A stretch of DNA of 64,000 nt from Legionella sp. Lineage in GTDB: Bacteria > Pseudomonadota > Gammaproteobacteria > Legionellales > Legionellaceae. The stretch covers positions 26,331-90,330 of the forward strand of contig PEQK01000015.1 of assembly GCA_002786165.1 (NCBI GenBank), in the 5' to 3' direction. The notes under the pieces were generated by a model that ran no database searches, had not been told where the DNA came from, and saw only the letters and a list, made by a program, of their open reading frames with translations. Positions 3,985 through 46,737 of the stretch are shown piece after piece; the first letter of the stretch is position 1; each line of letters opens with the position of its first letter. The position numbers were made by a program, and so were the translations under genes.

Positions 3985-4725
3985 TTGAAACAGTTCATCA
4001 TCATCGCCAATGGGCCTTTTTTGGCCCAAGACATTATTCAAGAAGCCATCCAAGATAGGCAGATTATCGCTTTGGATGGCGCTGCAGACAAATTATTAAC
4101 CATCAATATCAAACCGGATGTTATTTTAGGTGATTTTGATTCTATTCATCCTAAAACCCAAGCGTATTGGGGGATCACACAGACCTTTGTTGCCATGTCA
4201 GAGCATGCAAAACCCTATATAGGACATCATGGTGTTAAAATTGTACCCGCGAAAGATCAATCCACCACCGATTTGGTAAAAGCCATCCAATATTGTGATC
4301 AAGAGCAAGCACAAGACATTAGTATTATTTGTGCTACCGGTGGACGAGAAGATCATCACGAAGCAAGCAAATTAGCGCTGCAAAGCGAATATCGCGCTGA
4401 TCGCCCCATCATTATTCATAGCGAACAACAAACCTTGCGTTGGGCAGAGCATGAAACAATTACGCTACACGGCGAAGCGGGCGATCATTGTGGTTTTGTT
4501 GCCCACGGTACAGGTCGTGGATATTCAAGAGGTCTCATGTATCCTTGCCGTAACATCCCCATCAGTTTATGCAACCGTTTGAGTCAGAGCACCGCTCAAA
4601 TTACCATCGAAGGTGCTGCTCTATTGATGATGCCGCCCCAATTGTTGGCCCAACGCAAAATCATGCGCGCCAATGAAGCAGTGTTAATGCAATGTTTGGA
4701 CAAAATAAAATTATTGTCTTTTTAA
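3985..4725 (+). CDS. Thiamine pyrophosphokinase
   Basis: Transfers pyrophosphate from ATP to thiamine to make thiamine diphosphate. The family motifs are all present in order: IIANGPF at the N-terminus, LDGAADKLL, the metal/nucleotide motif ILGDFDSI, the STTDLVKAI segment and ATGGREDH. The C-terminal beta-rich domain follows (residues about 150-246). Length 246 fits. Translation appears to start at a TTG immediately after the trxA stop codon, so expression should depend on coupling to trxA. The Legionella/eukaryote-type TPK fold is clear; the gene name varies between organisms (thiN or tnr3), so none is given. Confidence 0.87.
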   Translation: MKQFIIIANGPFLAQDIIQEAIQDRQIIALDGAADKLLTINIKPDVILGDFDSIHPKTQAYWGITQTFVAMSEHAKPYIGHHGVKIVPAKDQSTTDLVKAIQYCDQEQAQDISIICATGGREDHHEASKLALQSEYRADRPIIIHSEQQTLRWAEHETITLHGEAGDHCGFVAHGTGRGYSRGLMYPCRNIPISLCNRLSQSTAQITIEGAALLMMPPQLLAQRKIMRANEAVLMQCLDKIKLLSF

Positions 4726-5762: not shown

Positions 5763-7478
5763 TTAAAACGCCATACCTGAATTAAACTCATCATCTGAGT
5801 TTAATTCAGGTACTTTAGGACATTTTGTCAGAGAAATATATGGCTCTGTCTTAGACGCTCTTATCTTGTAGCAACCCTTATCGTGAGCCACCCTATATCC
5901 CTGAACTGGCGTCTGCTTATTCGTTAGGGAATCCCAATAAGCATATTGGGTTTTATTAACTTTGCGCAATTCTTGTTCATTACCTAATGTATCAACAAAG
6001 TAACCTAACCTCGTTGAATTTGTTCTTTCCCATTGCTTACGGTTGCCATTTTCAGATTGCTTTTTCAACGAAGTTGCGAACATGCTTTGCTCCGACACCG
6101 ATAACGCTTTTTTTGCTGATGGCGGAGGAGGTAATGATGACTCCAAATCACTCTGAAATAATGAATCAAATACCTCGTTATCTTTTTCCTGCTCAAAATA
6201 AAGCGTTAATTTACCAGAAGGATTATAATTGATTTTTTCTATCTCTGTATTGTTTGTGGTATAGATAGTAGCCTTTAGAGATAGAGTTTGATCATTGAAA
6301 TCTGAGGCCAAATAAATAACCCCTAACTCTAAATCACAACATAGAATATGATTCCCAAGACTTGGTTCTTTTTTAAAATCACCAATAAGTAAAAAATAAT
6401 GAAATATGTTCAAATCGTTTTGTTTTATCTTTGTTTCAGTGGAGGCTAATTGAAACAATTCTTTTTGCTTAGGATATAAATATCGTAAATACCCTAGTGC
6501 ATAAGACGCCAATAATTCACTATCCCCGCACCGTAATTGATGTAATTTTGCTTGATAGATGCTCAACGCAAATTTTTTCTGAAACTCACTTTCGGGGTAA
6601 ATATATTTGAAGTGAGCATTTTTGTACTCCCTAAGAATTTGCAGTGTATCCTTTATTTTCTTGGCATATAGAGGATAGGGCAGTTTATTGACAGAACCTT
6701 CTGGAAAACGCTCAAAGCACTTTTGAAAAACCTCCTGCGCAAAAGGCAAATACTCATGCGACGCCATAGAGGGAGAAAAAAGTGAAAAGGATCTCTGTAC
6801 GAGTGAATCATATTTTAAATAATGTTCTTTAGGAGGAATAGCAATGTCTCCTGAAAGATAATCATAATCAAATGCGGCAAGTGTTATTTTGTCAGATTGT
6901 TGGAGCAACCCGTACGTTTTAAGCTTAAGGTGTTGCGCTCTAAGTTTGCCAAAATCTGATCCCAAATAAACTTCTCTTGACCAAAAATCACAAACTATAA
7001 AAGTGTCAAAATTGCTTTTCTCAACGTCATAAGGCAACCCGGTCCCAATCAACAACAGAGAGTGCGATCTTGGAAAAGAGCCAGAATAGTCTTTGTGAAT
7101 CACAGAAGACGGTATGTCTTGCTGAATAGTGACCAAATGAAAGAGCGCTTTGCTATCGGGATAAGTAGTACGAAGATATCCCAACAAATAATTTGTCAAT
7201 AATTCAGCGTCCCCACTTTGCAATTCGCTAAAAACCGTAGTGTAACCTTTAGACGATGATTGCTCAGAAATATACTTTTCGTGTTGATCTTTAAATTGAT
7301 TACTCTTTATTAGGGTAGAAATGATCGTTTCTTCTTCATCCAAAGCAGAGACCCGAGTAGCAGCGCCTTTTGGGAAACGACGATCTAACTCTTGAAAAGC
7401 GAATTGTGCATACTCAAAAAGAGGCCGAGATGCGAGTTTATTATCATACAAATATGTTGGTTCGTTTTGAGTATGCAT
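5763..7478 (-). CDS. Hypothetical protein with two tandem homologous domains (possible papain-like fold)
   Basis: A 571-residue protein built from two copies of a domain of about 180 residues. The copies align well: SGDAELLTNYLLGYLRTTYP (residues 88-107) against CGDSELLASYALGYLRYLYP (317-336), then HSLLLIG (139-145) against HYFLLIG (360-366), then CDFWSREVYLGSDF against CDLELGVIYLASDF. A Cys-Gly-Asp/Glu helix followed by His and then Asp is the order seen in papain/transglutaminase-like folds. The second copy keeps Cys317, His360 and Asp382; the first has Ser88 in place of the Cys. The last 130 residues are unrelated and polar. TGGAG lies eight bases before the ATG. Fold and catalysis are inference; no known family is recognised. 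Confidence 0.65.
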   Translation of the reverse strand: MHTQNEPTYLYDNKLASRPLFEYAQFAFQELDRRFPKGAATRVSALDEEETIISTLIKSNQFKDQHEKYISEQSSSKGYTTVFSELQSGDAELLTNYLLGYLRTTYPDSKALFHLVTIQQDIPSSVIHKDYSGSFPRSHSLLLIGTGLPYDVEKSNFDTFIVCDFWSREVYLGSDFGKLRAQHLKLKTYGLLQQSDKITLAAFDYDYLSGDIAIPPKEHYLKYDSLVQRSFSLFSPSMASHEYLPFAQEVFQKCFERFPEGSVNKLPYPLYAKKIKDTLQILREYKNAHFKYIYPESEFQKKFALSIYQAKLHQLRCGDSELLASYALGYLRYLYPKQKELFQLASTETKIKQNDLNIFHYFLLIGDFKKEPSLGNHILCCDLELGVIYLASDFNDQTLSLKATIYTTNNTEIEKINYNPSGKLTLYFEQEKDNEVFDSLFQSDLESSLPPPPSAKKALSVSEQSMFATSLKKQSENGNRKQWERTNSTRLGYFVDTLGNEQELRKVNKTQYAYWDSLTNKQTPVQGYRVAHDKGCYKIRASKTEPYISLTKCPKVPELNSDDEFNSGMAF

Positions 7479-7649: not shown

Positions 7650-8612
7650 TTAAGATAATTTAGGAGAAAGCGACGATATGGGACCTAATGATGTACGAGG
7701 TCTAGTGGAAGAAAAAAAAGCATAGCGAATCATATCTGCAAACTCATGGCGTTGCTGCTTTACAGCTAATTTGTACGGGGTTGTACCCAATAGGGTAGGT
7801 TGCGTGCATAAAACGCTAGGATCTGCCAACAAATAGGCCAACACATCACGACGACCATTAAAAACAGCTAGCCATACAGGCGTTACCCCACTCACTGTGA
7901 CATAATTATGATTTAAATCGTCTCGTTTTTTTAGACTTTTCATGCAGTCTAGATGCCCACAATAAGTCGCTATGGTATAAGGCGTATACCCAGTCGCATC
8001 TACCGTGTTGACATCTACTGCGACATGGGAAACCAAATAATCGACCACAGGGGCATGGCCGTATTTGGCTGCAATAAATAAGGGCGTTTCGTTTTGTTTG
8101 TTTTTTTGATTCAGGTTCACACCATAATCCACCAAAAATTGGATTAGGTCTAAATCTGCACCCAAAGCGGCTTGGCATAAAGAAAGCTTGCTGTGGCTCA
8201 TGATAAAAAGTTGTAAAAATACGTTGTTTTGCATCAACTCAATAAACAGTGATCCTTGGTTCGTTTGAGATAAATACGATATCAATTGGTTTGAATTGAT
8301 TTTATTGATGTAAAAGTTTACGTTGGGCAATGTGATGATGGTTGTCAAAACCAATGTAGGCCATTGTTTTTTCAGAGCCAATAATAAAAATGCGATCTTA
8401 AGCCACTCTAACTCCGTCAGAGGCTGTGAATCACGTAGGCTATAATTGATGATTAAAGCTGTGATAGGTTGTCGATCTTGCGGATTGGTGAGCTTTTTTG
8501 TTGTTAAAAAATACTCGGCTAACGACAAAAAATCATAAGAGTGCCCTGTATTGGTGATCACCGGTAATATCATTTTTTCTAAGCTGATAGGACAATCGAA
8601 TGATTTAGGCAT
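7650..8612 (-). CDS. U-box plus ankyrin-repeat protein, candidate E3 ubiquitin ligase effector
   Basis: Residues about 4-60 form a U-box: FDCPISLEKM, PVITNTGHSYD, then NPQDRQPIT and a closing INYSLRD. This is the eukaryotic E2-binding domain of E3 ubiquitin ligases. From about residue 165 come three to four ankyrin repeats (ETPLFIAAKYGHAPVVDYL, GYTPYTIATYCGHLDCM, GVTPVWLAVFNGRRDVLAYL, GTTPYKLAVKQ). The design recalls LubX-type effectors of Legionella, with ankyrins as the likely substrate reader. There is no signal peptide. The start is ATG 8612; an in-frame GTG three codons upstream is possible and neither has a strong ribosome binding site. It probably acts in a eukaryotic host cell, since bacteria lack ubiquitin. 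Confidence 0.85.
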   Translation of the reverse strand: MPKSFDCPISLEKMILPVITNTGHSYDFLSLAEYFLTTKKLTNPQDRQPITALIINYSLRDSQPLTELEWLKIAFLLLALKKQWPTLVLTTIITLPNVNFYINKINSNQLISYLSQTNQGSLFIELMQNNVFLQLFIMSHSKLSLCQAALGADLDLIQFLVDYGVNLNQKNKQNETPLFIAAKYGHAPVVDYLVSHVAVDVNTVDATGYTPYTIATYCGHLDCMKSLKKRDDLNHNYVTVSGVTPVWLAVFNGRRDVLAYLLADPSVLCTQPTLLGTTPYKLAVKQQRHEFADMIRYAFFSSTRPRTSLGPISSLSPKLS

Positions 8613-8673
8613 CGTAATCACTAAAAAATAAAAAATTATATCACAATGATTTAAATTTATCCATATATGGTTG

Positions 8674-10175: not shown

Positions 10176-10458
10176 TTGTGATCCTCGTTGATGAAAAACG
10201 TATTTGAATTGACCTCATTAGCGCCTTTTAATTTATCTATCTTCGTAGAAACGACTACGTCAAAAAGCGTTTAAAAATAACTATACATGGTATCGTGTTA
10301 CAAACAAGACAAAGATCGTCATGCATCTCATTGAATTATGACACAAATCTAAAAAGCCAAACCAGAGTTAAAAATTAAATCTGATTTGAGGAAAAACCTT
10401 ATAGACAGGTTATTGGGCCTTCAATAAAATTGTGCTACAAAACATACGGATGTGTTCA

Positions 10459-11715
10459 ATGGAACTAAAATCTTTCATTACTGATGCTGATGACTCACTG
10501 TTCTCTCTTTACAATTTACCCTATGGTATATTTTCTTGCAATCACAATGAAAACTATCGGGTGGGCGTTGCTATCGGCAATCAAGTATTAGATCTTGCCT
10601 GTTTAGAGCACGCTGGACTTATTAAGATTGCAAATAAAAAAAACATTTTTAATCAAACATCACTCAATATTTTCGCAGGACTAGACGCACAAACACGGTT
10701 ACATATTCGTAATAGAATTCAATTGTTATTAAGCATCAACAACGATGAATTGCAAAAAAACAAGTCGTTACGTTCAAACGCGCTCATTAGCACTGAAAAA
10801 ATTACGATGGCACACCCATTTCAAATAGAAGGATTTTCCGATTTTTACACGTCAGAACACCATGCCACAAACGTTGGCAAGCTGTTTCGAGATAAAGACA
10901 ACCCACTGTTGCCAAATTGGAAGTATTTACCCGTAGGATACAATGGGCGAGTCAGTACGATTAATTTATCTGGTCACGCCATACGAAGACCCAAAGGACA
11001 AATCAAGCATCCGGATCAACATACACCAGTTTTTTCTGAGAGTAGAAAGCTAGATTTTGAGCTTGAAATGGGAGTTTTTGTTGCTCAAGGCAATCCAGAT
11101 GGCACACCAATATCTGTTGATAAAGCCCGGAAGCATATTTTTGGGTTGGTATTATTAAATGATTGGAGTGCCCGTGATATTCAAGCTTTTGAATATCAAC
11201 CTTTAGGCCCATTTTTATCTAAAAGTTTTGCAACATCTATTTCACCCTGGGTCGTCCCTTTGGAGGCATTGCAAGACTACTGCACGCCGATGCCAATACA
11301 GCAACCAGAACCTGTTGATTATTTAAAACAAAAAGAACGTTCATTGATCGACATTAAATTAAAAATTCAAATACAACCTAAAGATTCGACTTTAATAACG
11401 ACCGTATGTGAGACAAATTTCTCCGAATTATATTGGAGCATGGAACAAATGTTAGCGCATCACACCATTAACAATTGTATTATGAAAACGGGGGATCTAC
11501 TAGGCACAGGGACAATCAGCGGCTCCGACAGCCAATCTTGGGGTAGTCTTCTAGAAAAAACGTACAATGGAACACAACCTATACAACTGGATGGGGGTGA
11601 AACACGCCATTTTTTAGAGGATGGAGATTCAGTCATTATTACAGGCTATTGTGATAATGGAAAACATAAATTAGGATTTGGAAAAGTTGAGAATAAGATA
11701 GTAGCCGCATCTTAA
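10459..11715 (+). CDS. Fumarylacetoacetase-like hydrolase
   Basis: Looks like a full-length fumarylacetoacetate hydrolase, the last enzyme of tyrosine breakdown (fumarylacetoacetate to fumarate plus acetoacetate). The N-terminal domain begins SFITDADDSLFSLYNLPYG, like animal FAH. The catalytic domain has DFYTSEHHATNVGKLFRD, the metal-binding DFELEM, NDWSARDIQ and SKSFATSISPW. The start at 10459 gives about 418 residues, close to the 419 of human FAH; an open frame reaches GTG 10432. No homogentisate dioxygenase or hydroxyphenylpyruvate dioxygenase gene is nearby. It is followed by an exporter gene on the same strand and lies beside the phosphonate operon, so a role on another oxo-acid is possible but unsupported. 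Confidence 0.83.
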   Translation: MELKSFITDADDSLFSLYNLPYGIFSCNHNENYRVGVAIGNQVLDLACLEHAGLIKIANKKNIFNQTSLNIFAGLDAQTRLHIRNRIQLLLSINNDELQKNKSLRSNALISTEKITMAHPFQIEGFSDFYTSEHHATNVGKLFRDKDNPLLPNWKYLPVGYNGRVSTINLSGHAIRRPKGQIKHPDQHTPVFSESRKLDFELEMGVFVAQGNPDGTPISVDKARKHIFGLVLLNDWSARDIQAFEYQPLGPFLSKSFATSISPWVVPLEALQDYCTPMPIQQPEPVDYLKQKERSLIDIKLKIQIQPKDSTLITTVCETNFSELYWSMEQMLAHHTINNCIMKTGDLLGTGTISGSDSQSWGSLLEKTYNGTQPIQLDGGETRHFLEDGDSVIITGYCDNGKHKLGFGKVENKIVAAS

Positions 11716-11762
11716 AAAATACAGTATCACCAAACAACACCATACTCACTGGAGCATAACTG

Positions 11763-12944
11763 TTGATCAAAAAAGCAAAAATATACTCTAGCATATTTTT
11801 ATTTAGCCTCATATTTTTAACACCTATACCTAATTTTGGCACAGATGTTTATTCGCCATCTTTACCCGAGATAGCCAAAAGCCTATCAAGTAGCGATGAG
11901 TTAATAAAACTCAGCGTATCAATTTACTTAATCATGTACGGAATAGGACAGCTTTTTTTTGGAGTCCTCTCAGATGTATACGGTAGAAGAAAATTATTAC
12001 TTCATGGCTTAGCACTATTTACTATATTTAGTTTTATTGCCTCTTATTCAAATAGTATTTACATACTACTAGCAGCAAGAATAGCTCAAGGCTTAGCTGT
12101 ATCGATCATATCGGTATTAACGAAAGCAATCATCACAGACAAATATTGCGGACGTAAACTCAAAAAAGTATCCACTTACAAGGTTAACGCTCAAGTATTA
12201 AGCATTATTTTAGCACCACTTCTTGGCAGCTATATTCAGACTATTTCGAATTGGACGTATTCTTTTGTATTTTTAGGAACATATGGTGCAATAGGATGGT
12301 TTTGCGCTTTGTTGTTTATTCCAGAAACGTGTAAGAAAAAATCAAAACTTAACATCAAACTTGTTTTTCTTAGTTTAAAATACATTTGTTCACATGAGAC
12401 GTTCATGTTGCTCACCATAGATACGGCAATTTTATATTCGATCATAGGATTATTAGGCGTACTAGGGCCATTTATCTTACAAGACACCATGAAATATGGA
12501 CCATTGACCTATGGAATTTCAGCACTATTCTGTGGTTTATCTTATATGAGTGGCTCCATAGTATCTTATCGCCTTACTCCCAAAGGTTTGTTTTATCTTT
12601 CTTCTGTCATATTCATGGTATCGTCCATGGTATTGATTTTATCAACACTATGGACCGTGATATCGGTCTTTTTGTTTGTTATTCCCGTATTACTCATAAT
12701 GGGCGCTTGCGGCTTATTACTCCCAAGAATGATGAATTACACGCTCAACGTATTCAGACTAAAAGCAGGGGGCGCTGCAAGTGCTGTATTTGGTGCTTTG
12801 GTGATGTTTGGTATGGGACTAACATTAAGTATCAGCGGTTTTGTAAACACTAAGAGCTTGGCTCCTATAGGTTGTTTTTATTTTTTATTATGTTCGATTT
12901 GTATTTCCATATTAAGCTTTAAAAAATTATATCAACATTTATAG
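11763..12944 (+). CDS. Bcr/CflA-type MFS drug exporter
   Basis: A 393-residue transporter with twelve predicted membrane helices. The N-terminus has TDVYSPSLPEIAKSL, and the loop between helices 2 and 3 reads GVLSDVYGRRKLLLHG, the signature of drug:proton antiporters such as Bcr. GGAG lies nine bases before a TTG start. It runs from 48 bases after the fumarylacetoacetase-like gene and ends seven bases from the convergent end of the phosphonate operon. Position suggests it may export the product of that operon or give self-resistance; MFS pumps that expel fosfomycin are known, but the specificity here is inference. Confidence 0.8.
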   Translation: MIKKAKIYSSIFLFSLIFLTPIPNFGTDVYSPSLPEIAKSLSSSDELIKLSVSIYLIMYGIGQLFFGVLSDVYGRRKLLLHGLALFTIFSFIASYSNSIYILLAARIAQGLAVSIISVLTKAIITDKYCGRKLKKVSTYKVNAQVLSIILAPLLGSYIQTISNWTYSFVFLGTYGAIGWFCALLFIPETCKKKSKLNIKLVFLSLKYICSHETFMLLTIDTAILYSIIGLLGVLGPFILQDTMKYGPLTYGISALFCGLSYMSGSIVSYRLTPKGLFYLSSVIFMVSSMVLILSTLWTVISVFLFVIPVLLIMGACGLLLPRMMNYTLNVFRLKAGGAASAVFGALVMFGMGLTLSISGFVNTKSLAPIGCFYFLLCSICISILSFKKLYQHL

Positions 12945-12951
12945 ATCGTTT

Positions 12952-13566
12952 TTACAGCAAAGTGTCTGCTTTCGGCATAGAAATAAGTTCATCGCCTAAT
13001 TGTAAGTATTTGCCGTAACCCACTCTTGCGATCAACTGCATTTTTTTCAGATCGATGAATCCGTCAGTCATGACCGACGGATTCACATGAATACCTTTTA
13101 CCTTACCAATCACCATTTTATTAACATATTTTTCTGAGTCACTGGGTAATTGAATTGAGTCGTGGTATTCGCACTCTAAATGTATAGGAGAATCTTTTAC
13201 TCTTGGCACATGAATCAAATGCGAAGGCTCATAATCGATGTTTGCAAAATCAAATTCATTGACCGCTCTCAAAAGAGAGGCAGACGTTAGATTCATAGCT
13301 TCCATTAATTGCAAAGTCACAATGTTGATGACAAATTCGCCAGTTTCTTCTATGTTTTTAAGCGTATCCTTCGGCCCGCCTTCTATATGAGCTTTAGTTG
13401 TTGAAAACAAAACCATGGCTGGATTTTCACAAACGATATTAAAATAGCTAAAAGGGGCAAGATTAGGTATGCCAAATTTACTGACCGAACTTATCCATGC
13501 AATTGGTCTTGGCACAACACAAGCGTTCAGCAATCCTTTGGGCATGTCTTTCAAGGTATAAAACAT
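12952..13566 (-). CDS. Flavin reductase-like, FMN-binding split-barrel protein
   Basis: A 204-residue protein of the flavin reductase-like domain family: PRPIAWISSV near the N-terminus, then NLAPFSYFNIV and ENPAMVLFS, the usual FMN phosphate and isoalloxazine contacts, and DTLKNIEETGEFVINIV. It is the last gene of the minus-strand operon, four bases after the dehydrogenase stop, with AGG of its ribosome binding site inside the end of that gene. Such enzymes deliver electrons from NAD(P)H through FMN. A link with the neighbouring non-heme iron epoxidase, as a reductant source, is inferred from position. Confidence 0.8.
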   Translation of the reverse strand: MFYTLKDMPKGLLNACVVPRPIAWISSVSKFGIPNLAPFSYFNIVCENPAMVLFSTTKAHIEGGPKDTLKNIEETGEFVINIVTLQLMEAMNLTSASLLRAVNEFDFANIDYEPSHLIHVPRVKDSPIHLECEYHDSIQLPSDSEKYVNKMVIGKVKGIHVNPSVMTDGFIDLKKMQLIARVGYGKYLQLGDELISMPKADTLL

Positions 13567-13570
13567 TTTT

Positions 13571-14473
13571 TTAACCTATAATGATGGGAGTATTGATTTT
13601 ATTTTGTATATGATGAAAACACTCGGTTTGATCAGCCTGTGCTCCAAAAACTTTTTTGGTTGCTTCAAACAAATCGATGGTCATTTTCGATAAAACCAGA
13701 TCTAGTTCTGTCTGCTTTAACAAAGCATGCGCCAGAAAAAGGTCTTTGGTTCTTACATCAAGAGTAACAGCAACATGCTCTATATTTTCCGCTAACCTAT
13801 TCAGTAAAATATCCATATAAGCTGACTTTCCTCTGGCTGTTGTTAGCACAGCTCTTAAAGTATCGATATCAAATCCAAGCTTCAATCCTAAAGAAACAAC
13901 CTCCGATGCACCATGTAAATTGATACTCTCAGCTAAATTGTTAATAATTTTTAATTTTTGAGCATCACCATTATTGCCAACATAATGAACACTTGAGCAA
14001 AAATGTTTTAATAGGATAACAGCTTGTCCAAATACATCCAAATCCCCAGCACAAATAGCCGTCATCGTACCATTTTTTGCTCCTTCTTGGCCCCCCGACA
14101 CAGGGCTTTCGAGATAACTGATGTTGAACGCCTGAAGTCTTTTAGAAACATCTATGGCAAAATCTGGAGACGTGGTACTCAAATCAATGAGGGTGATTTT
14201 TTTTTGAGTCACATCCAAGTATGGCGCATTTGCAAGAATTAACTCTTGAAAAGCATCCTCATTTCCTAGGCAAACAAAAATTGTTTCACAATGCAATATA
14301 TCCAATATCGAATCCGCCTGTATCGCGCCCTGATCTACCAACGGTTTACATTTGTTTTTTGTTCTATTATAAATTTTTACTTGAAAATGCTTTGATAGCA
14401 ACTGTTCTACGATCGCAGAACCAAGAATTCCTGTACCAATCCAACCAATTATCGCTGATGCGGGATTATTCAT
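13571..14473 (-). CDS. Beta-hydroxyacid dehydrogenase, Psf3-like (2-oxopropylphosphonate reductase candidate)
   Basis: A 300-residue NAD(P)-dependent dehydrogenase of the 3-hydroxyisobutyrate/6-phosphogluconate dehydrogenase superfamily. The Rossmann loop is G13-T-G15-I-L-G18 in IGWIGTGILG; the substrate loop ESPVSGGQEGAKNGTMTA is at about 122-139; the catalytic lysine is Lys175 in KIINN, with Asn179 nearby. In the pseudomonad fosfomycin pathway a reductase called Psf3 reduces 2-oxopropylphosphonate to (S)-2-hydroxypropylphosphonate just before epoxidation. Its place directly downstream of the HppE homologue supports the same role here. The start is ATG 14473; an in-frame TTG lies seven codons upstream. 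Substrate is inferred. Confidence 0.8.
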   Translation of the reverse strand: MNNPASAIIGWIGTGILGSAIVEQLLSKHFQVKIYNRTKNKCKPLVDQGAIQADSILDILHCETIFVCLGNEDAFQELILANAPYLDVTQKKITLIDLSTTSPDFAIDVSKRLQAFNISYLESPVSGGQEGAKNGTMTAICAGDLDVFGQAVILLKHFCSSVHYVGNNGDAQKLKIINNLAESINLHGASEVVSLGLKLGFDIDTLRAVLTTARGKSAYMDILLNRLAENIEHVAVTLDVRTKDLFLAHALLKQTELDLVLSKMTIDLFEATKKVFGAQADQTECFHHIQNKINTPIIIG

Positions 14474-14520
14474 GATAATGAACTCTGTTGACAATAAATA
14501 TAATTAACTAAAACGGTGAT

Positions 14521-14569
14521 AATGACAAACTCACATAAAAAATTTATGTTTCATTGAGAGTCTGTCATT
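14521..14569. promoter_or_regulatory. Inverted repeat between the HppE-like and Psf3-like genes
   Basis: AATGACAAACTC (14521-14532) pairs with GAGTCTGTCATT (14558-14569) with one mismatch, and the loop itself holds a nested arm ACATAAA/TTTATGT. It lies in the only sizeable gap inside the minus-strand operon after the PHP gene. It could be an RNA processing or attenuation hairpin, or a binding site. No U-run follows on the minus strand, so a simple terminator is unlikely. Confidence 0.45.
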
Positions 14570-14585
14570 AGCCCCATAACACTAT

Positions 14586-15134
14586 TTAATAATTCACCGC
14601 GATAAGTTCCGAATTATCTTCCATAGCCATAAAACTGTGAGGGACATTTGGAGATACATAGGCTGAATCACCGACATTAAGCTCCACGTTTCTTACGCCA
14701 TTGTCAGTTTTCCAATCCATTCTGACTTTGCCTTTGGTAACATAAACCAGCTCTTTAGAATCATGTCCGTCATTTAACGTAATTTTATCGATATCTTTGC
14801 AGTGTAAATCTACTCTAAGTGCCATCAAATTTGGTTCCGTTTTTGTCGTAGCCAAATGATTATAGGTATAGTACTTCACCCCTCCTTTTTCACTCACTCT
14901 ATGAAACGAGTCATTTTTTCGACTAATTTTAATCCCATCATCCAGATCATTTTCCACAAAAAAATCTTTCACGGGGACAGCTAATTTATCTGACAAATGT
15001 TTTAACTCAGTAAAATTTTTAAAAATAACATCGCCATTTTTAACCTCATAATCACGGATGATCTGATCTGGCAACATTTTCCTACTCGCTACGAGCGATT
15101 CAACAACATGTTGTTTAATAGCTAAATTTGTCAT
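14586..15134 (-). CDS. HppE homologue: (S)-2-hydroxypropylphosphonate epoxidase (fosfomycin synthase type)
   Basis: An N-terminal helical domain (residues about 1-60) precedes a cupin (about 85-182). The active-site pattern of HppE is present with its spacing: Asn121, His124 and Glu128 in NDGHDSKEL, then His166 and Phe168 in VPHSF; His124, Glu128 and His166 are the expected iron ligands. The substrate tyrosines are Tyr88, Tyr89 and Tyr91 in KYYTYN, and Lys19 lies where HppE has its phosphonate-binding lysine. NDLDDG (62-67) and the ending LIAVN also match what I recall of Streptomyces HppE. The position of its Arg97 holds Lys83. The protein is 182 residues against about 190-200 for known enzymes. 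AAGGAG sits seven bases before the ATG. HppE closes the epoxide of fosfomycin using iron and peroxide. Confidence 0.88.
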   Translation of the reverse strand: MTNLAIKQHVVESLVASRKMLPDQIIRDYEVKNGDVIFKNFTELKHLSDKLAVPVKDFFVENDLDDGIKISRKNDSFHRVSEKGGVKYYTYNHLATTKTEPNLMALRVDLHCKDIDKITLNDGHDSKELVYVTKGKVRMDWKTDNGVRNVELNVGDSAYVSPNVPHSFMAMEDNSELIAVNY

Positions 15135-15160
15135 ATTGCTTCTCCTTAGTTGAATAAAAA

Positions 15161-15885
15161 TTATGAAATAAGATGCTTTCTATATGCGCTAGAAATCTGC
15201 ACCAACTGCTCTGCTTCAGGCGAAATACTAATACTAACTTTATTGGTTTTTATAGCATTTTTAAACATTGAGAACCCAAAGACATCATCACTACACATGG
15301 TGTATCCCACGCCTATTTGAGCCCATGTGTGTGCATCACTTCCTGCTACAAAATTTTTTTTAAGGCTTGTAGATAAATTTCGGTATTTTTCTTTTTGCAC
15401 AATATCTTTTGCGGGTAACTCAATGGCGTCTAAAAGATGTGATTTTTCTTCTATATGATTTATCCACTTTCCTGGCCTGTAGAGATGATGGCCTACTATA
15501 ACGAAACTATCCGTTGCAGTTGAAACAGTATCAAGGAGACTTTCTAGGGTGTAGTATCCTTTATTTTTATTTAAACTCTTTAGAATACTAGTTGCGTGTG
15601 CAATCCAACATCAGCACCACCGCTCAGAGCAACTTCAGCACCAGAAGTAGCAATTAAGCCATTGGGCAAGCGTACAACACCTTCATCCAACAACTCGCCT
15701 CCTAATATGTTATTTAAAAACAAATCATTCAATAAATGCGAATAATGAATCGCATCTAAATGCTCCGTACAACAAACAACATCCAAATCCTTCATTCTAG
15801 CAATATCAAAATAAAAATTGATTGATTTCCAGTCAGGCTTAGACTCTTTCGTTAAGAAAAGATGAGTATGTGTATCTATTTTCAT
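15161..15885 (-). pseudogene. PHP-superfamily metalloenzyme (PsfC-like candidate), frameshifted
   Basis: The N-terminal part reads KIDTHTHLF, CTEHLDAIHY and SGAEVALSGGADVGLH, then hits a stop near 15582. Continuing in another frame from about 15600 gives ATSILKSL, VIVGHHLY and the PHP hallmark GSDAHTWAQIG, ending at 15161. Joined, the two parts make about 240 residues with a complete set of PHP metal ligands (His6, His8 at the N-terminus). The frames meet at a short CA-repeat, and removing two bases restores the frame. The start is ATG 15885, with AAGG eight bases upstream. A PHP-superfamily enzyme, PsfC, performs oxidative decarboxylation of 2-phosphonomethylmalate in pseudomonads, so this is the likely counterpart. 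It may be a real lesion, a recoded gene or a sequence error. Confidence 0.75.
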
Positions 15886-15908
15886 AAAATTAGCCTTATT
15901 CATTATAA

Positions 15909-16796
15909 TTATTCAGTTATTTTGATTGCCTTAGCCGCATAAGTTTCATAATTTGCGTTATGCAGATCCATACCTTGCAAATCAAATAACTCACCTACTG
16001 TTGCAATATCTGCTTCGATAAAAGCAGTGGTTTCTTGCGTTATAATATTTTTGAAAGTTTTTTTGACAGCAGTCACACTTGCTCTAATACCTTGATTTGC
16101 ATAAATGACACCTTTTATTGTTGCGTCAATAAAGTCAGTCACTTTGGTACCATAGTATGTGGTTGGAACAATAAAGACAGGTAAACTACCTTTGTATAAC
16201 CGCATAAAATTAAAAATTTCATCCGGTTTTTGCTGTTTGGAATGAATCAATAGGGCGTCTGCGCCAGATTTTTCATAAGCTACAGCCCTTTTGAGAGCCT
16301 CGTCCATCCCTGCGCCTGCAATCAATGCTTCTATTCTTGCAATAATCATAAAGCTGTCATTTTTCTTAGCCGCATTAGCTGCTATTAGTTTGGCAGAAAA
16401 ATCTTCAATAGATACTAGGTTTTGTCCTGAATTTACGAAGCTATTTATTTTAGGAAAATGTTTGTCTTCTATACATATGGCGGCAATACCCCTGTCTTCA
16501 TATGATTTCACCAAATGAATCACATTATTGATATCACCAAACCCTGAATCGCAATCAGCGATCACAGGAATATCAACAGTCTTGTTTATCATATCTGCAA
16601 TTTGCAAACATTCACTCATAGACAATATATTCGCATCTGGCACACAATAAGAAGAAGCAATTTCAAATCCACTGGCCCAAATGGCGTCAAATCCAGCCAT
16701 TTGAGCAAGTCTCGCGCTTAAACCATTATGTGCGCCAGCTAAGCGAATGATTTTATTATTTGCTAGTGTTTCACGCAGCAGAATACTTTTATTCAT
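15909..16796 (-). CDS. Phosphoenolpyruvate phosphomutase (PEP mutase)
   Basis: Catalyses rearrangement of phosphoenolpyruvate to phosphonopyruvate, the C-P bond-forming first step of nearly all phosphonate biosynthesis. The diagnostic EDK-x5-NS motif is complete: Glu110-Asp111-Lys112 to Asn118-Ser119. It separates true mutases from the related isocitrate and phosphonopyruvate hydrolase groups. Metal-binding Asp81 and Asp83 lie in ADCDSGFG, and WASGFE (40-45) closes the active site. The 295-residue length is typical. ATG 16796 was chosen because the family N-terminus (LRETLANNKIIRLAGAHNGL) follows and AAAGGA lies upstream; the longer open frame would overlap the preceding gene. It starts 13 bases after the synthase gene. 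Confidence 0.93.
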   Translation of the reverse strand: MNKSILLRETLANNKIIRLAGAHNGLSARLAQMAGFDAIWASGFEIASSYCVPDANILSMSECLQIADMINKTVDIPVIADCDSGFGDINNVIHLVKSYEDRGIAAICIEDKHFPKINSFVNSGQNLVSIEDFSAKLIAANAAKKNDSFMIIARIEALIAGAGMDEALKRAVAYEKSGADALLIHSKQQKPDEIFNFMRLYKGSLPVFIVPTTYYGTKVTDFIDATIKGVIYANQGIRASVTAVKKTFKNIITQETTAFIEADIATVGELFDLQGMDLHNANYETYAAKAIKITE

Positions 16797-16809
16797 ATCA
16801 TGGCATCCT

Positions 16810-17958
16810 TTAATAAGAGAGCATTTCTTTTTCAGACAGATGACGATAAATATCAATCAGTTCAGACATGGTTAAAGATGTATTTTTTAACATAGATTTT
16901 TTTCTAACTTCTTTTAAACAAATGTCCAAAAGAGATTCATCCACCTCAATGTTTTCATGTTCTAATGTATGTTGAATGGCGTTTTTACCACTATGTTTTC
17001 CTATGACAATTTTTCGTTCTCCACCGACAATGTCAGCATCAAAAGGTTCAAATGTTGTCGAATGCCTTAGAGTGCCATTGGCATGAATGCCTGATTCGTG
17101 CGCAAATACGTTGGTACCTGTAATTGGATGCCAAGGATATAAAGGCGCATTAGAATAATTAGCCACCAAGTGTCCTAAACGAGTAAGCTTACTCAAATCA
17201 ATACCCAAATCAATCTGATGTAACTGCCTTAGGGCCACAATGACTTGGGCAAAATCTGGCATCCCCGCTCTTTCTCCTATACCATTCACAGTCACATGAA
17301 AATACTGCGCCCCCGCATCTAAAGCCGCGAGGGTATTTGCTACAGCCAAACCAAAATCATTATGGGCATGACTCTGAAGAGGAATCGACGAAACTTTTTT
17401 TATCGCCCTAATAATTTTTTGATATTTTTTGGGATAAAGAACACCTATGGTGTCAGACAAACGCAACCTATCTGCACCAGCTTCTTCGACAACACAGGCA
17501 TAATCTTGAAGGAAAGATATTTCAGTTCTACCCACGTCCTCAGCGCTAATAGAAACATATACATCTTTGTTTTTTGCGTAGTTGATTAATTCTTTTGCTT
17601 TATTTAAAAGCCAGGTTCGATCTTTTTGTATGCTATTTTTCAAATGCACATTCGACGTTGGTAGGCCAATATGTACCGCCTTAAATCCCAAAGATATGGA
17701 AAAAGCCACATCATCTAAAACGCCTCTGTTCCAAGCTATGGCAGTCACATTATCATTTATAGCCATATCTTTAATGCATTTTATTGCCTCTAACTCCTCT
17801 CCACCCATAGCAGGGATACCCACTTCAAGCCATTGCACACCAATATCTACAAGTGCTCTGTAAATATCAATTTTAACTTTTTTATTGAAAGCAAGCCCTG
17901 GCGCTTGTTCTCCATCTCTAAGCGTTGTATCTTCTATTATGATGTTGTTTTTTATCAT
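16810..17958 (-). CDS. Homocitrate synthase-like acyltransferase (2-phosphonomethylmalate synthase candidate)
   Basis: A 382-residue member of the DRE-TIM metallolyase group. The N-terminal DTTLRDGEQAPG (10-21) has the catalytic Arg14 and metal Asp15; LEVGIPAMG follows; the metal-binding HAH is His197-Ala-His199; NGIGERAGM and HESGIHANG complete the family pattern. By sequence alone it would be called homocitrate synthase. Being first in an operon with PEP mutase and an HppE homologue, it more likely condenses acetyl-CoA with phosphonopyruvate to give 2-phosphonomethylmalate, as Psf2 or FrbC do. ATG 17958 is preceded by AAAGGGG eight bases away. Substrate is inferred; the enzyme class is firm. 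Confidence 0.85.
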   Translation of the reverse strand: MIKNNIIIEDTTLRDGEQAPGLAFNKKVKIDIYRALVDIGVQWLEVGIPAMGGEELEAIKCIKDMAINDNVTAIAWNRGVLDDVAFSISLGFKAVHIGLPTSNVHLKNSIQKDRTWLLNKAKELINYAKNKDVYVSISAEDVGRTEISFLQDYACVVEEAGADRLRLSDTIGVLYPKKYQKIIRAIKKVSSIPLQSHAHNDFGLAVANTLAALDAGAQYFHVTVNGIGERAGMPDFAQVIVALRQLHQIDLGIDLSKLTRLGHLVANYSNAPLYPWHPITGTNVFAHESGIHANGTLRHSTTFEPFDADIVGGERKIVIGKHSGKNAIQHTLEHENIEVDESLLDICLKEVRKKSMLKNTSLTMSELIDIYRHLSEKEMLSY

Positions 17959-18313
17959 TGAAAAACCCCTTTCAAAATATGACATCCCTTTATTTTTCAA
18001 ACTGAGTATGACGAATCCTATCTACATACAACCATGAAAAATATGATGAAAAATTCTACTACTGAAAAATGAATATGTTGAGGCTAGGGTTTTATACAAT
18101 CTAATCATCATTATCCCCAGTTAAAATTCAACTAACCTGATATCTGATAATGGTTTTCATGAAATGATGAGCGGCATAGGGCCTGATCAAGGGTATTGGT
18201 CATCTGTGATTGAAGAGCGACGTCCAGGGTAGATGATGTTTATTTAAAAGACAATTTTCGTCTTTAAGATACGAAAAAGACCTCTTGGATTGCAATAAGG
18301 TCTGACCACCATA
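17959..18313. other. Gene-free region upstream of the phosphonate operon
   Basis: About 350 AT-rich bases lie between the start of the phosphonomethylmalate synthase candidate and the stop of rlmL. The operon promoter should be here, on the minus strand, but I see no strong -35/-10 pair. Weak hairpins are present at about 18249-18268 (AAAGAC/GTCTTT) and 18268-18294 (AGACCT/AGGTCT); the first could end rlmL transcription on the minus strand. No coding frame of note was seen. Confidence 0.4.
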
Positions 18314-20443
18314 TCAGGATAGGCTATCCCTATTTCTAATCAGAAAACACTGATGAATTTTACTATTGCGCTTAAAATCCACATCAATGGTTTCTTTGGT
18401 GATATCTTGAACTATATAATCCTGCGCAATCATGGCGTCTAATTTAAATTGACGTAAATTAGTTGAAAAATACAACACCCCTTTGGGGGTGAGCAACGAC
18501 ATACAAGCTCGGATCAATTGCTCATGATCTCGAGCAATATCTAAGGTTTGAGTCATACGCTTTGAATTAGAAAAACTAGGCGGATCCAAGTAAATCACGT
18601 CAAAATGATCGCGCGTGAGTCCCAACCATTCTAAACAATCATATTGGATAAATTGGTGCCTAGAAGGCGCTAGGCTATTCAAACGAAAATTCTCTTCAGC
18701 CCAAGTCAGATAAGTGCGTGACAAGTCAACATTGGTAGTTAAAGCACCCGCTAATGCCGCACGGACACTGGCTGTCCCCGTGTAACAAAAACAATTTAAA
18801 AACCGCAGTCCTGGCGTCAAATTGCCAAAACGTCGGCGTAACAAACGGTGATCTAAAAATAAACCCGTATCCAAATAATCATGTAAATTCACGTAAAACA
18901 AGGCACTGTCTTCTTTTACGGTTAATAATTGCCGTTCTTCTGCTATTTTTTCGTATTGCTGCGTTCCTCGTTGGCGGGCCCGTTGTTTCACCACAATATG
19001 ACTTGGTTTAAAGCCTAAAACATCTGGGACCACTTTCAAGACATCTTGGCGACGTTGTTCCGCTTTATCTTCAGGAATAGAGGCAGGAGGCGCATATTCT
19101 TGAAGCACAGCAAAGTCTTGATATACATCAATCGCATACGCATACTCGGGTAAATCCGCGTCATAGACACGATAACAATCAAGCTGCTGACGGTGCGCCC
19201 AAGCATTCAAATGCTTATGATTTTTTTTCAGTCTATTAGCAAACATTTGCGCATTTTCGGACAATGGCTTAGCAGGCGCATCCATACGCAAGCGGTTGGT
19301 AGGATCCAACGTCATACAATACAATTGACATGCCAAAGGACCATTATAAAATTTATATTGTTTATGTGATCGTAATCCTATGGCCCTGCCCAAACGAGGC
19401 TCAGAGGTTAATACCGCCGCGTCCCAATTTGCAAATGACCGATGCAAGACCTCGCCTAATGTTTGATAAAGCGGCATTAAGGTGTCTATATCGGACAAGC
19501 GCTCTCCATAGGGGGGATTAGACAACAATAACCCTTTGGCGCACGCCGCTTTTACATCACCTAAGATCAAAGATTGCACTTCAAAAGAGGTACAAGCAGA
19601 CACATTGGCGCGAGCAGCATTGGCTTTTGCCATTGCAATCGCACGAGGATCCTGATCAGTACCGTGTAGGATGACTTTAGCAGGCACATGTTGTTGCAGT
19701 GCAGTCATTCGACACTTTGCCCACAGTTGGGGATCATGCCCTAACCACGAGGGTAATAATTGATCTTGGCGCAACAAACCGGGCGCTATCTTTGCAGCCA
19801 TCATTGCAGCTTCAATCACCAAAGTACCAGAACCACAAAAAGGATCATGAAAACCATAGTCTTCGGTACAAGATAGTGGCCAGGGCGTTCGCATCAGCAT
19901 GGCAGCAGCCACGGTTTCTTTTATGGGCGCATGTCCAGCTTCTAATCGATATCCTCGTTGATGCAAACTATATCCAACCAAATCCAAATACACGGTTACC
20001 GTATCTTTGCGGACATAAGCACGTATTCTAATTTGTGCATGCTCACGATCAATGGTGGGACGTGGTAAGCCTTGATCGCGGCAATAATCAACCATACCAT
20101 CTTTTATAATCTGCGCCCCAAACATAGAATTACGAATGTTAGGAGAATCGCCCTGAAAATGAATAGCGAGCGTCGCATCAGTTTGAAACACATCGTTCCA
20201 TGCAAACTGTCGACATGCCGCCAGTACATCTTGCGGCTCAGCAGGCACCCCTTCAAATAAAACCAATAAGACCCGATTTGCAATTCTAGACCATAAGCAA
20301 ATCTGATAAATCATTTCAAGGCTGGCTATACCCGCTACCCCTTGAGGACTAATGCGCGTTGCGGCAAATCCTAACTGTTTTAATTCTTCTTCTAGAAGAT
20401 ATTCCAGCCCTTTTGGGCAGGTGACTAGAATAGCATGTGTCAT
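18314..20443 (-). CDS. rlmL: 23S rRNA (guanine) methyltransferase RlmKL
   Basis: A 709-residue bifunctional enzyme that makes m2G2445 and m7G2069 in 23S rRNA. The N-terminal THUMP domain covers about residues 45-155, followed by the RlmL Rossmann domain with FHDPFCGSGTLVIEAAM and the catalytic NPPYGERL at about 308-315. The C-terminal RlmK half has GLRFLNCFCYTGTASV and DPPSFSNSKRM at about 615. Size and both catalytic motifs match the gammaproteobacterial fusion. The ATG overlaps the stop codon of darP, so it sits in an operon with darP and the permease gene. Confidence 0.95.
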   Translation of the reverse strand: MTHAILVTCPKGLEYLLEEELKQLGFAATRISPQGVAGIASLEMIYQICLWSRIANRVLLVLFEGVPAEPQDVLAACRQFAWNDVFQTDATLAIHFQGDSPNIRNSMFGAQIIKDGMVDYCRDQGLPRPTIDREHAQIRIRAYVRKDTVTVYLDLVGYSLHQRGYRLEAGHAPIKETVAAAMLMRTPWPLSCTEDYGFHDPFCGSGTLVIEAAMMAAKIAPGLLRQDQLLPSWLGHDPQLWAKCRMTALQQHVPAKVILHGTDQDPRAIAMAKANAARANVSACTSFEVQSLILGDVKAACAKGLLLSNPPYGERLSDIDTLMPLYQTLGEVLHRSFANWDAAVLTSEPRLGRAIGLRSHKQYKFYNGPLACQLYCMTLDPTNRLRMDAPAKPLSENAQMFANRLKKNHKHLNAWAHRQQLDCYRVYDADLPEYAYAIDVYQDFAVLQEYAPPASIPEDKAEQRRQDVLKVVPDVLGFKPSHIVVKQRARQRGTQQYEKIAEERQLLTVKEDSALFYVNLHDYLDTGLFLDHRLLRRRFGNLTPGLRFLNCFCYTGTASVRAALAGALTTNVDLSRTYLTWAEENFRLNSLAPSRHQFIQYDCLEWLGLTRDHFDVIYLDPPSFSNSKRMTQTLDIARDHEQLIRACMSLLTPKGVLYFSTNLRQFKLDAMIAQDYIVQDITKETIDVDFKRNSKIHQCFLIRNRDSLS

Positions 20444-44200: not shown

Positions 44201-44392
44201 AAAAACTTGATGGCTATAATTCGCTAAATCATTGTCTAACTGTCGCCGTATTTTTCGGTTGATCCTGCCAAACAATTGTTCGCATTTTTCTTCGTAGGTA
44301 TCATCTTCTAAAAGAGGTAATAACAAACCCAGCACAAATGCTGTAAAAACCTGATTATCCCCATTAGGGACGGCAATCGCTTGTAAACTCAT
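41270..44392 (-). CDS. Giant hypothetical protein, OTU-like N-terminus, membrane hairpin and TPR/ankyrin-like parts
   Basis: 1040 residues, not recognised as a whole. Residues about 1-170 are homologous to the start of the next gene upstream: NGDNQVFTAFVLGLLLPL at the front, LADYLTSHQADY, LAEMMKIDIQIHHD and IHLTLLDDAYLYLVDP. That order resembles an OTU cysteine protease in which the catalytic Cys and His are lost. Residues about 372-430 are hydrophobic and glycine-rich, probably two membrane helices. A TPR-like segment follows (SAGQYNEAADYLDTEFGRW), and near residue 795 a degenerate ankyrin unit (TGDTLLHVLSLLPEQQ). Last gene of a three-gene operon. The role, perhaps as a secreted effector, is inferred. 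Confidence 0.65.
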   Translation of the reverse strand: MSLQAIAVPNGDNQVFTAFVLGLLLPLLEDDTYEEKCEQLFGRINRKIRRQLDNDLANYSHQVFPESLDGLITSHLRPRLADYLTSHQADYQRRYKKNQAALSAAIEAIRSNSPLFVDLVLDGLAEMMKIDIQIHHDLQGSDVVQQHTPQHGFNTTIHLTLLDDAYLYLVDPMTLPEDMRSHLFPHLSAHRISDPAVYRIERLKELLHEVISDIPSHLTNFSTKVPQKPMERGLSSTRPTTEDKHVMRFDSVRESHVVRNDLKNTVRMNRVYDLALWDARDGDYLPHRLYIKFNAQARGFNYIVRRPNNEITPQDGCFISFAELGITGITPTTIQDLNAYLSKILTITHARGDTQDLVVERGTMTEWVQTELTGAAVGSVSGLATLGAIVAFGEFEIAAGAGFALIPGMALPIAAGILLTTLVTTTIGKSYALHYEEAINKASEKLSAGQYNEAADYLDTEFGRWDIVKLIRSVHLENAHYAIAHFFRALCAEKLGRKDLAYKHYTISAEKLSQDAKKSMTYLVSQLQRLNLLKNAMPEELDLPDNHDISEEIKTILSKISVEYADGFANTYWDIHADMSTLATRLINPHLVDVYDIQKANQFLISDCFFAVQHFADGYGEFLSLFGSFFRGAILTSYFLYGWSYLDEQVRGELLNGLMYDTSWASRPDQFAFMKFLECTLQLQRFERDHAELIVNNPSIQASIELIKNFILNFHILVFSDRAVSDLHANLPQLLAITNQDLCIRRSKINDGLLLIAKINGDFNLSYTTISSLVAAIEANPSALFTLCSATGDTLLHVLSLLPEQQIDIQRMQRSAGHFKSLRHLSNKSEETPLDLLQVSDPYRLKAALFPQASLGTCGLILRSHFNEGEVRRLLEEYNAVYIRVQARGVNEVYYMYQTLDSKTSIALDDGQLAQFDQALQPTDRPRVLSEQELVLIHQQFGHSHEYSVWAFYIEEDKLDYADKMVTRRLNQFDAEDDAVRVPADPLTQKTPITHTKSTMASSTYKLFSGLFRTQKNNQKSSDAPAVDVSQQRRGFGNTG

Positions 44393-46722: not shown

Positions 46723-46737
46723 GCTATTTTCCTTATA

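What the first reader, a model, noticed from the sequence alone, without database searches (positions are those of the whole stretch)
12952..17958. Pseudomonad-type fosfomycin (epoxy-phosphonate) gene cluster in a Legionellales-like genome
Minus-strand genes in order encode a homocitrate-synthase-like enzyme, PEP mutase (EDK-x5-NS intact), a PHP-superfamily protein, an HppE homologue, a beta-hydroxyacid dehydrogenase and a flavin reductase. Known pathway logic in pseudomonads is PEP to phosphonopyruvate (Psf1), condensation to 2-phosphonomethylmalate (Psf2), PHP-fold oxidative decarboxylation (PsfC), reduction of 2-oxopropylphosphonate (Psf3) and epoxidation (Psf4/HppE). Every step has a candidate here, and the Streptomyces-only enzymes (phosphonopyruvate decarboxylase, the radical-SAM methylase Fom3) are absent from the cluster. 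A fosfomycin-like product from a probably intracellular bacterium would be unexpected; whether it has been reported could not be checked.
Basis: partly seen in the sequence, partly recalled or inferred. Interest (0 to 1): 0.95.

Follow-up and report, generated by a model that had tools for sequence, protein, structure and literature searches.

The report
Broken fosfomycin cluster in Legionella relative
A Legionella-like bacterium carries recognisable versions of the genes that Pseudomonas uses to make the antibiotic fosfomycin, side by side in one block, but the gene for one key enzyme is split by a reading-frame break in this assembly, so the pathway is likely silent here and would need re-sequencing to tell.

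Summary
The six minus-strand genes at 12952-17958 exist and form a tight block. HppE is closest to Pseudomonas Psf4 (PDB 5u55) and keeps the iron ligands; the dehydrogenase is closest to 5u5g (recalled as Psf3); the homocitrate-synthase-like enzyme groups with cluster-borne homologues, not with the four housekeeping synthases tested (NifV was not in that tree); PepM keeps EDK-x5-NS. Its N piece (15580-15903) and C piece (15161-15598) match adjoining halves of crystallised PsfC (7rty) but lie in different frames. In a control, 0 of 27 genus-conserved window stretches were split, so an assembly slip is possible but not the default. HppE is in 1 of 143 genomes of the family (this one); the slot between thiN and rlmKL is variable; PepM is of another subfamily than in the P. 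fluorescens cluster. Self-resistance cannot be judged: no FosA found, murA probably in an assembly gap. Reading: a horizontally acquired, mosaic psf-type fosfomycin operon, likely recently inactivated at psfC. A fosfomycin-like cluster in sponge chlamydiae was already reported (PMC9666466).

The parts
16810..17958 (-). psfB/psf2-like 2-phosphonomethylmalate synthase (homocitrate-synthase-like, 382 aa)
   Evidence: HMGL-like + HCS_D2; 55% to the homologue in the P. fluorescens PS833 cluster L007; starred clade 100/99 with L006, L007, L008, away from two IPMS and two homocitrate synthases. Best NCBIfam model NifV, 397.5 bits, cut-off 462.9
15909..16796 (-). pepM, PEP phosphomutase (295 aa from ATG 16796)
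   Evidence: PEP_mutase; 5unc E 1.9e-82; EDK-HFPKI-NS, whereas phosphonopyruvate hydrolase 2dua has TS at that place. TIGR02320 scores 301.4, under its cut-off 319.55
15580..15903 (-). psfC, N-terminal piece (PHP superfamily, 107 aa, ends at a stop in its frame)
   Evidence: 7rty PsfC residues 4-102, E 9.5e-17; 46% to L007 PsfC over 99 residues
15161..15598 (-). psfC, C-terminal piece in another frame; no start codon at its head (first ORF start listed in that frame is GTG 15400)
   Evidence: 7rty residues 106-243, E 2.2e-14; 30% to L007 PsfC; ORF list; no slippery heptamer before the first frame's stop in the 81 bases scanned
14586..15134 (-). hppE/psf4, predicted (S)-2-hydroxypropylphosphonate epoxidase (182 aa)
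   Evidence: 5u55 Psf4 E 1.1e-44, 45%; H124, E128, H166 invariant in 25 of 25 aligned rows; model pLDDT 90.9, best fold match 5u55
13571..14494 (-). psf3-like NAD(P)-dependent beta-hydroxyacid dehydrogenase
   Evidence: 5u5g E 4.8e-51 against 1.4e-32 for the next chain; 37% to 5u5g, 41% to the Priestia cluster gene, 31% to the PS833 one. 5u5g is labelled 6-phosphogluconate dehydrogenase; that it is Psf3 is recalled
12952..13566 (-). flavin reductase-like protein (204 aa), last gene of the block; role inferred
   Evidence: Flavin_Reduct PF01613; 3bpk E 3.5e-28; no homologue at E 1e-4 in the stretches held of L005-L009
11763..12944 (+). MFS transporter, Bcr/CflA-like; possible exporter, convergent with the block
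   Evidence: TIGR00710 187.3 bits, under its cut-off 200.9; not similar to the MFS protein of the L007 cluster
10432..11715 (+). fumarylacetoacetase, flanking; likely not part of the pathway
   Evidence: TIGR01266 532.5 bits, cut-off 375.3
3985..4725 (+). thiamine pyrophosphokinase gene, one border of the variable slot
   Evidence: TPK_catalytic; nearly abuts rlmKL in genus relative G005
18314..20443 (-). rlmKL, other border of the variable slot

Best explanation
This is a block of genes related to the Pseudomonas-type (psf) fosfomycin genes, in a Legionella-like genome, likely acquired by horizontal transfer and likely inactive as assembled because its psfC gene is split by a frame break. The predicted route, by homology and not assayed: PepM turns PEP into phosphonopyruvate; the PsfB-like synthase adds an acetyl group to give 2-phosphonomethylmalate; PsfC (di-iron PHP fold) oxidatively decarboxylates it to 3-oxo-4-phosphonobutanoate, which loses CO2 to give 2-oxopropylphosphonate; the Psf3-like dehydrogenase reduces that to 2-hydroxypropylphosphonate; HppE closes the epoxide to give fosfomycin. 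The flavin reductase would supply reduced flavin and hence peroxide for HppE, and the neighbouring MFS protein would export the product (both inferred). With psfC broken the flow should stop at 2-phosphonomethylmalate. Five of the six genes keep open frames, so the loss is likely recent.
For: Genes and order; families. HppE: Psf4 best by sequence and fold, iron ligands kept, MPnS domains split off 96/84. PsfB: 55% to PS833, starred clade. PsfC: both pieces match 7rty, each with its own metal-binding motifs. Psf3: 5u5g best. PepM motif. The core order psfB-psfC-psf4-psf3 is shared with PS833 L007; here pepM stands between psfB and psfC. Horizontal gain: HppE in 1 of 143 genomes of the family, own included; PepM at E 1e-40 in none of the 33 other family genomes; G+C 0.367 against 0.386 upstream and 0.434 downstream; thiN and rlmKL nearly abut in G005, and none of the five relatives' stretches round rlmKL holds the block (one of them, L054, is only 5 kb). 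Break: different frames, no start at the head of the C piece, no split gene among 27 checked stretches. HppE neighbours elsewhere: a FosA-like gene beside the 61%-identical HppE of L005 (Fos_GSH 151.4 bits, cut-off 180), and beside HppE in L006 and L008 a kinase of the FomA/isopentenyl-phosphate-kinase type. Chemistry up to 3-oxo-4-phosphonobutanoate and 2-oxopropylphosphonate from PMC12871164 (passages seen); the later steps are recalled.
Against: No product, expression or enzyme data. PepM is of another subfamily than that of PS833 (30%); Psf3 is only 31% to PS833, with long, unsure branches. PepM scores under its NCBIfam cut-off, and the PsfB-like enzyme's best NCBIfam model is NifV, also under cut-off; no NifV row was in the tree. 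The kinases of L006 and L008 score best as isopentenyl phosphate kinase, over its cut-off, and far under that of FomA, so they are weak witnesses for fosfomycin. No resistance gene in the block; no FosA in the genome (best E 0.06). The frame break rests on one assembly without reads, so it may be an error; that it is recent is inference. Direction and donor of transfer are not shown.
Confidence: 0.72

Rival explanations
1. The frame break in psfC is a sequencing or assembly error, or a variant present in only part of the population, and the living bacterium has a complete psf-type pathway that likely makes fosfomycin.
For: The other five genes are intact; both PsfC pieces keep their metal-binding motifs and the C piece has no stop before its natural end; only one lesion is seen. 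The genome is a 22-contig draft.
Against: 0 of 27 genus-conserved window stretches are split over frames, so such errors are rare here; no long single-base run lies before the first frame's stop at the break (sequence).
Confidence: 0.22
2. The operon is a phosphonate cluster of the 2-phosphonomethylmalate kind whose end product is not fosfomycin but another epoxide or a hydroxy-phosphonate.
For: Clusters sharing PepM, PsfB and PsfC can make other products, such as flavophos in Burkholderia (PMC12871164, passages); PepM and Psf3 here are distant from PS833.
Against: HppE and Psf3 homologues together are the two late fosfomycin steps; HppE keeps all ligands and is nearest Psf4; the related HppE locus L005 carries a FosA-like gene.
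Confidence: 0.08
3. Another protein of the genome bypasses PsfC, so that the pathway works without it.
For: The Bacillota HppE clusters L006 and L008 have PsfB-like, HppE, Psf3-like and PepM genes and no match to the PsfC N piece in the stretches held (the C piece was not sought there), but a 248-257 aa protein in that place, of no known family (L008 copy scanned), so PsfC may be replaceable in principle.
Against: No such protein stands in this block; a flavin reductase has no activity of this kind that I know of. A second PsfC was not sought genome-wide.
Confidence: 0.04

Closest known systems
psf fosfomycin cluster of pseudomonads (P. syringae PB-5123; the locus compared here is P. fluorescens PS833, L007)
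   Same: PsfB, PsfC, Psf4/HppE and Psf3 homologues in the same relative order; a PepM in the block; no phosphonopyruvate decarboxylase among the block's genes
   Different: psfC broken; pepM of another subfamily and in second place; flavin reductase added; the FAH-fold and MFS proteins of PS833 have no homologue in the minus-strand block; no resistance gene in the block
HppE clusters of Bacillota (Salinibacillus kushneri L006, Priestia flexa L008)
   Same: HCS, HppE, Psf3-like and PepM homologues; PepM (50%) and Psf3 (39-41%) here are closer to these than to PS833 (30% and 31%)
   Different: they have an unassigned 248-257 aa protein after the HCS gene, plus FomA/isopentenyl-phosphate-kinase-type and dTMP-kinase-like genes; the HCS here is closer to PS833
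HppE locus of an alphaproteobacterial MAG (L005)
   Same: HppE 61% identical
   Different: PepM with a cytidylyltransferase-like N part, decarboxylase-like and iron-alcohol-dehydrogenase-like genes (read by eye from the ORF list), i.e. nearer the Streptomyces route as I recall it; a FosA-like gene
Fosfomycin-like cluster of sponge-associated chlamydiae (PMC9666466)
   Same: Putatively endosymbiotic bacteria with a PepM cluster scored as fosfomycin-like (0.61 similarity, 50% PepM identity, as the passage says)
   Different: Only passages seen; the gene content was not compared here
Flavophos (bsf) cluster of Burkholderia (PMC12871164)
   Same: PepM, 2-phosphonomethylmalate synthase and PsfC homologues
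   Different: Per the passages seen: a beta-ketoacid cleavage enzyme and an EamA transporter; the word HppE does not occur in the main text

Membership tests
psf-type fosfomycin biosynthetic cluster | PepM with EDK-x5-NS | tested here: met
   EDK-HFPKI-NS; but TIGR02320 score under cut-off
psf-type fosfomycin biosynthetic cluster | 2-phosphonomethylmalate synthase (PsfB/Psf2) distinct from housekeeping synthases | tested here: met
   Starred clade 100/99 with three cluster-borne homologues; two IPMS and two homocitrate synthases outside. NifV not in the tree; NifV is the best NCBIfam model, under cut-off
psf-type fosfomycin biosynthetic cluster | Intact psfC (di-iron PHP-fold oxidative decarboxylase) | tested here: not met
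   Recognised in two pieces in different frames; homology met, intact reading frame not met
psf-type fosfomycin biosynthetic cluster | Psf3-type reductase of 2-oxopropylphosphonate | tested here: inconclusive
   5u5g best by a wide margin, but the small tree is unsure; activity not tested
psf-type fosfomycin biosynthetic cluster | Absence of Ppd and radical-SAM Fom3 from the cluster | tested here: met
   None among the eight proteins scanned at 10435-18000; the rest of the genome was not searched
psf-type fosfomycin biosynthetic cluster | Self-resistance gene (FosC/FomA kinase; recalled) | tested here: inconclusive
   None in the block; no FosA in the genome; a kinase was not sought genome-wide; murA probably in a gap
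psf-type fosfomycin biosynthetic cluster | Makes fosfomycin | not testable with these tools
   Needs chemistry
HppE (hydroxypropylphosphonate epoxidase) | Two His and one Glu iron ligands in a cupin | tested here: met
   H124, E128, H166 invariant in 25 of 25 rows; that these are the ligands is recalled from S. wedmorensis HppE
HppE (hydroxypropylphosphonate epoxidase) | Closer to HppE than to MPnS/HEPD, with the N-terminal helical domain | tested here: met
Phosphonopyruvate hydrolase | TS in place of NS after the EDK loop | tested here: not met
   Query has NS, 2dua has TS

The most novel reading that the evidence does not exclude
A Legionella-like, probably protist-dwelling bacterium carries, in part of its population with an intact psfC, a mosaic psf-type operon and makes the MurA inhibitor fosfomycin, perhaps to keep rival bacteria out of its host cell; the broken copy read here would be a population variant.
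Probability: 0.15. Interest if true: 0.82.

Novelty: new variant of a known kind. Interest (0 to 1): 0.5.

Why it matters
Fosfomycin is a clinical antibiotic with few known producers. A psf-type block in a Legionella-like genome widens the range of its genes, suggests that the block is built from separately exchanged parts (PsfB/PsfC/HppE with a different PepM), and catches it with one lesion at the step that defines the pseudomonad route. Whether that lesion is real decides between a lost and a living pathway in a bacterium that likely lives in protists.

Tried and rejected
Housekeeping origin of the HCS, PHP and cupin proteins: rejected within the rows tested. Phosphonopyruvate hydrolase instead of PepM: rejected on the NS motif. 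Programmed frameshifting in psfC: the only slippery heptamer in the 81 bases scanned (at 15575) lies after the first frame's stop, so it cannot serve. Two separately translated halves: the C piece has no ORF start listed before GTG 15400, which would leave out its HH motif. Loss of murA as self-resistance: one EPSP-synthase match in this genome against two or three in all five genus relatives (in that call four other genomes of 32 also had fewer than two, G010, G014, G038 and G041, so drop-outs occur); a relative's MurA finds only the same AroA-like gene at 25%; the neighbouring nif3-like gene gave nothing (which itself warns that an empty answer without a positive control shows nothing) and MlaE only a 31% match. 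A missing stretch of assembly is likelier than loss; the names MurA, AroA, nif3 and MlaE are mine from the sequences. FosA in the genome: best E 0.06, 28%, taken as unrelated. The fumarylacetoacetase as a pathway gene: unlikely, it passes its equivalog cut-off, though the PS833 cluster also holds an FAH-fold protein. HppE in plasmid and phage records: no match; in viral contigs none. Structure of the Bacillota 248-aa protein: pLDDT 42.5 from two rows, unusable. Rfam: nothing at gathering score in the window. Papers: searches (Legionella or Legionellales with fosfomycin or phosphonate terms, intracellular symbionts) listed no title or abstract start that describes such a cluster in Legionellales; of their hits I saw passages of PMC9666466 only. 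Searches were seen as listings, with passages of PMC12871164 and PMC12256460 (nothing on a fosfomycin cluster in the passages). The two primary psf papers are not held.
Full report
What is there. Minus-strand genes at 12952-17958 form one tight block: homocitrate-synthase-like, PepM, PHP, HppE, beta-hydroxyacid dehydrogenase, flavin reductase, with gaps of 4 to about 110 bases. A Bcr/CflA-like MFS gene and a fumarylacetoacetase gene lie on the plus strand beyond the end of the block. The window is part of contig 10 of a 1.95-Mb draft in 22 contigs, 97.5% complete. The nearest named organisms by RlmKL are Legionella species at 59-61% (three names readable among 120 rows, most rows unnamed or with the name cut off).

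Identity of the enzymes. HppE (14586-15134) matches Psf4 of Pseudomonas (5u55) at E 1.1e-44, ahead of MPnS (2.6e-21), Streptomyces HppE (5.7e-17) and HEPD (8.6e-11). H124, E128 and H166 are invariant in 25 of 25 rows of the family alignment; Y91 is invariant and K19 nearly so (their roles are recalled). In the tree the two MPnS domains split off (96/84); many inner forks are open, and the nearest rows by path are P0002-P0006. Nine relatives are 61-69% identical; the only one of these with an organism name is P0009, an alphaproteobacterial MAG (the search scored 60 candidates and kept 25). The model has mean pLDDT 90.9, and the first seven Foldseek matches are Psf4 chains (TM 0.57-0.65 with rmsd near 11 A, probably because the helical domain is placed differently in a single-chain model; that is inference). 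The PsfB-like synthase is 55% identical to the one in the P. fluorescens PS833 block and joins the cluster-borne clade (100/99), not the two IPMS and two homocitrate synthases given; its best NCBIfam model is NifV at 397.5 bits, cut-off 462.9, and NifV was not in the tree. The dehydrogenase is nearest 5u5g (E 4.8e-51, next 1.4e-32), which I recall as Psf3. PepM has the NS of mutases, not the TS of the hydrolase, and scores 301.4 against a cut-off of 319.55.

The break. The PHP gene ends after 107 codons, and the rest is open in another frame. Searched apart, the N piece matches 7rty PsfC residues 4-102 and the C piece 106-243. Beside full-length PsfC homologues (16 found, 244-259 aa; the L007 protein and 15 of them aligned) the pieces keep the motifs DTHTH, TEH, GAE and GLH (N) and HH and SDAH (C). 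The C piece has no ORF start until GTG 15400, and no slippery heptamer lies before the stop in the bases scanned. As a control I took ORFs of at least 150 aa from 15 stretches of five genus relatives: 89 matched the window at 45% identity or more over 80% of their length in one frame, covering 27 distinct window stretches, and none met the test for a split over two frames. Rows under 45% identity, and rows with low coverage without a second piece, were in neither count, and the block itself has no relatives in that set. So errors of this kind are rare in the window, but a single error is not excluded.

Origin. HppE was found in 1 of 143 genomes of the family (E 1e-10), 1 of 369 drawn from the class and 1 of 398 drawn from the phylum (E 1e-20), in each case only this genome. 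PepM at E 1e-40 was in 2 of 55 genomes, the own one and G044 of another family. In G005 thiN and rlmKL nearly abut; in G003 and G004 the slot holds other ORFs; in G002 thiN was not within the stretch; in G001 the contig ends near rlmKL. G+C of the block is 0.367, upstream 0.386, downstream 0.434. The parts have different nearest kin: PsfB nearest PS833 (89/92); PepM about equally near the two Bacillota rows (50%) and 5unc (49%), while PepM of PS833 and of L005 form a separate pair (100/100); Psf3 nearer to Bacillota (39-41%) and 5u5g (37%) than to PS833 (31%), in a tree with long, unsure branches. I read this as horizontal gain of a mosaic block into a variable slot.

Function and status. The chemistry up to 3-oxo-4-phosphonobutanoate and its breakdown to 2-oxopropylphosphonate is as described in the passages of PMC12871164; the last two steps are recalled from work on Psf3 and HppE. 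The role of the flavin reductase is inferred: HppE is recalled to use hydrogen peroxide, which reduced flavin can yield. No homologue of it was found in the stretches held of the five loci (L005 and L008 are short, and L009 is a weak match). Since psfC is broken, the likeliest state of the locus as read is a recently silenced pathway. Self-resistance cannot be judged: no FosA, and murA lies in what is probably a gap.

What is new. The kind is known: psf-type fosfomycin clusters in pseudomonads, and a fosfomycin-like cluster in sponge chlamydiae (PMC9666466, passages). New here, as far as the searches named in Tried and rejected go, are the host lineage, the mosaic make-up, the added flavin reductase and the broken psfC. 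Because intact psfC was tested and not met, I do not file the locus as a complete psf pathway, only as a variant related to one.

Noticed in passing
L008 5269-11058 and L006 8009-15203: Priestia flexa NBRC 15715 and Salinibacillus kushneri carry HppE blocks with PepM, a PsfB-like synthase, a Psf3-like dehydrogenase, a FomA/isopentenyl-phosphate-kinase-type gene, a dTMP-kinase-like gene, and a 248-257 aa protein of no Pfam or NCBIfam family (L008 copy scanned) after the synthase gene, where psfC stands in PS833: a candidate new enzyme for that step.
   Followed up: partly
L005 420-6659: An alphaproteobacterial MAG has HppE (61% to the window's) with a PepM fusion, a decarboxylase-like gene, an iron-dehydrogenase-like gene and a FosA-like glyoxalase (Fos_GSH 151.4 bits, cut-off 180): a different, Streptomyces-like route beside the same epoxidase (enzyme names other than FosA and PepM read by eye).
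   Followed up: partly
L007 11461-13499: The P. fluorescens PS833 psf block holds an FAH-fold protein and an MFS-like protein between psf3 and pepM; the FAH-fold protein could be the decarboxylase of 3-oxo-4-phosphonobutanoate (inference).
   Followed up: no
G000, whole genome: murA, its nif3-like neighbour and the mlaE orthologue of a genus relative were not found in the assembly, probably one gap.
   Followed up: partly
window 7650-8621: Protein with ankyrin repeats and a weak U-box match, of the look of a host-directed protein; lies in the same variable slot.
   Followed up: no
window 5763-7478 and 41270-49311: Large proteins; G+C is about 0.35 at 46-52 kb. The 571-aa one has no Pfam match; the three at 41270-49311 were not scanned.
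   Followed up: no
L004 (G044): Another genome of the class has a PepM homologue (44%) inside a 561-aa open frame, perhaps a fusion.
   Followed up: no
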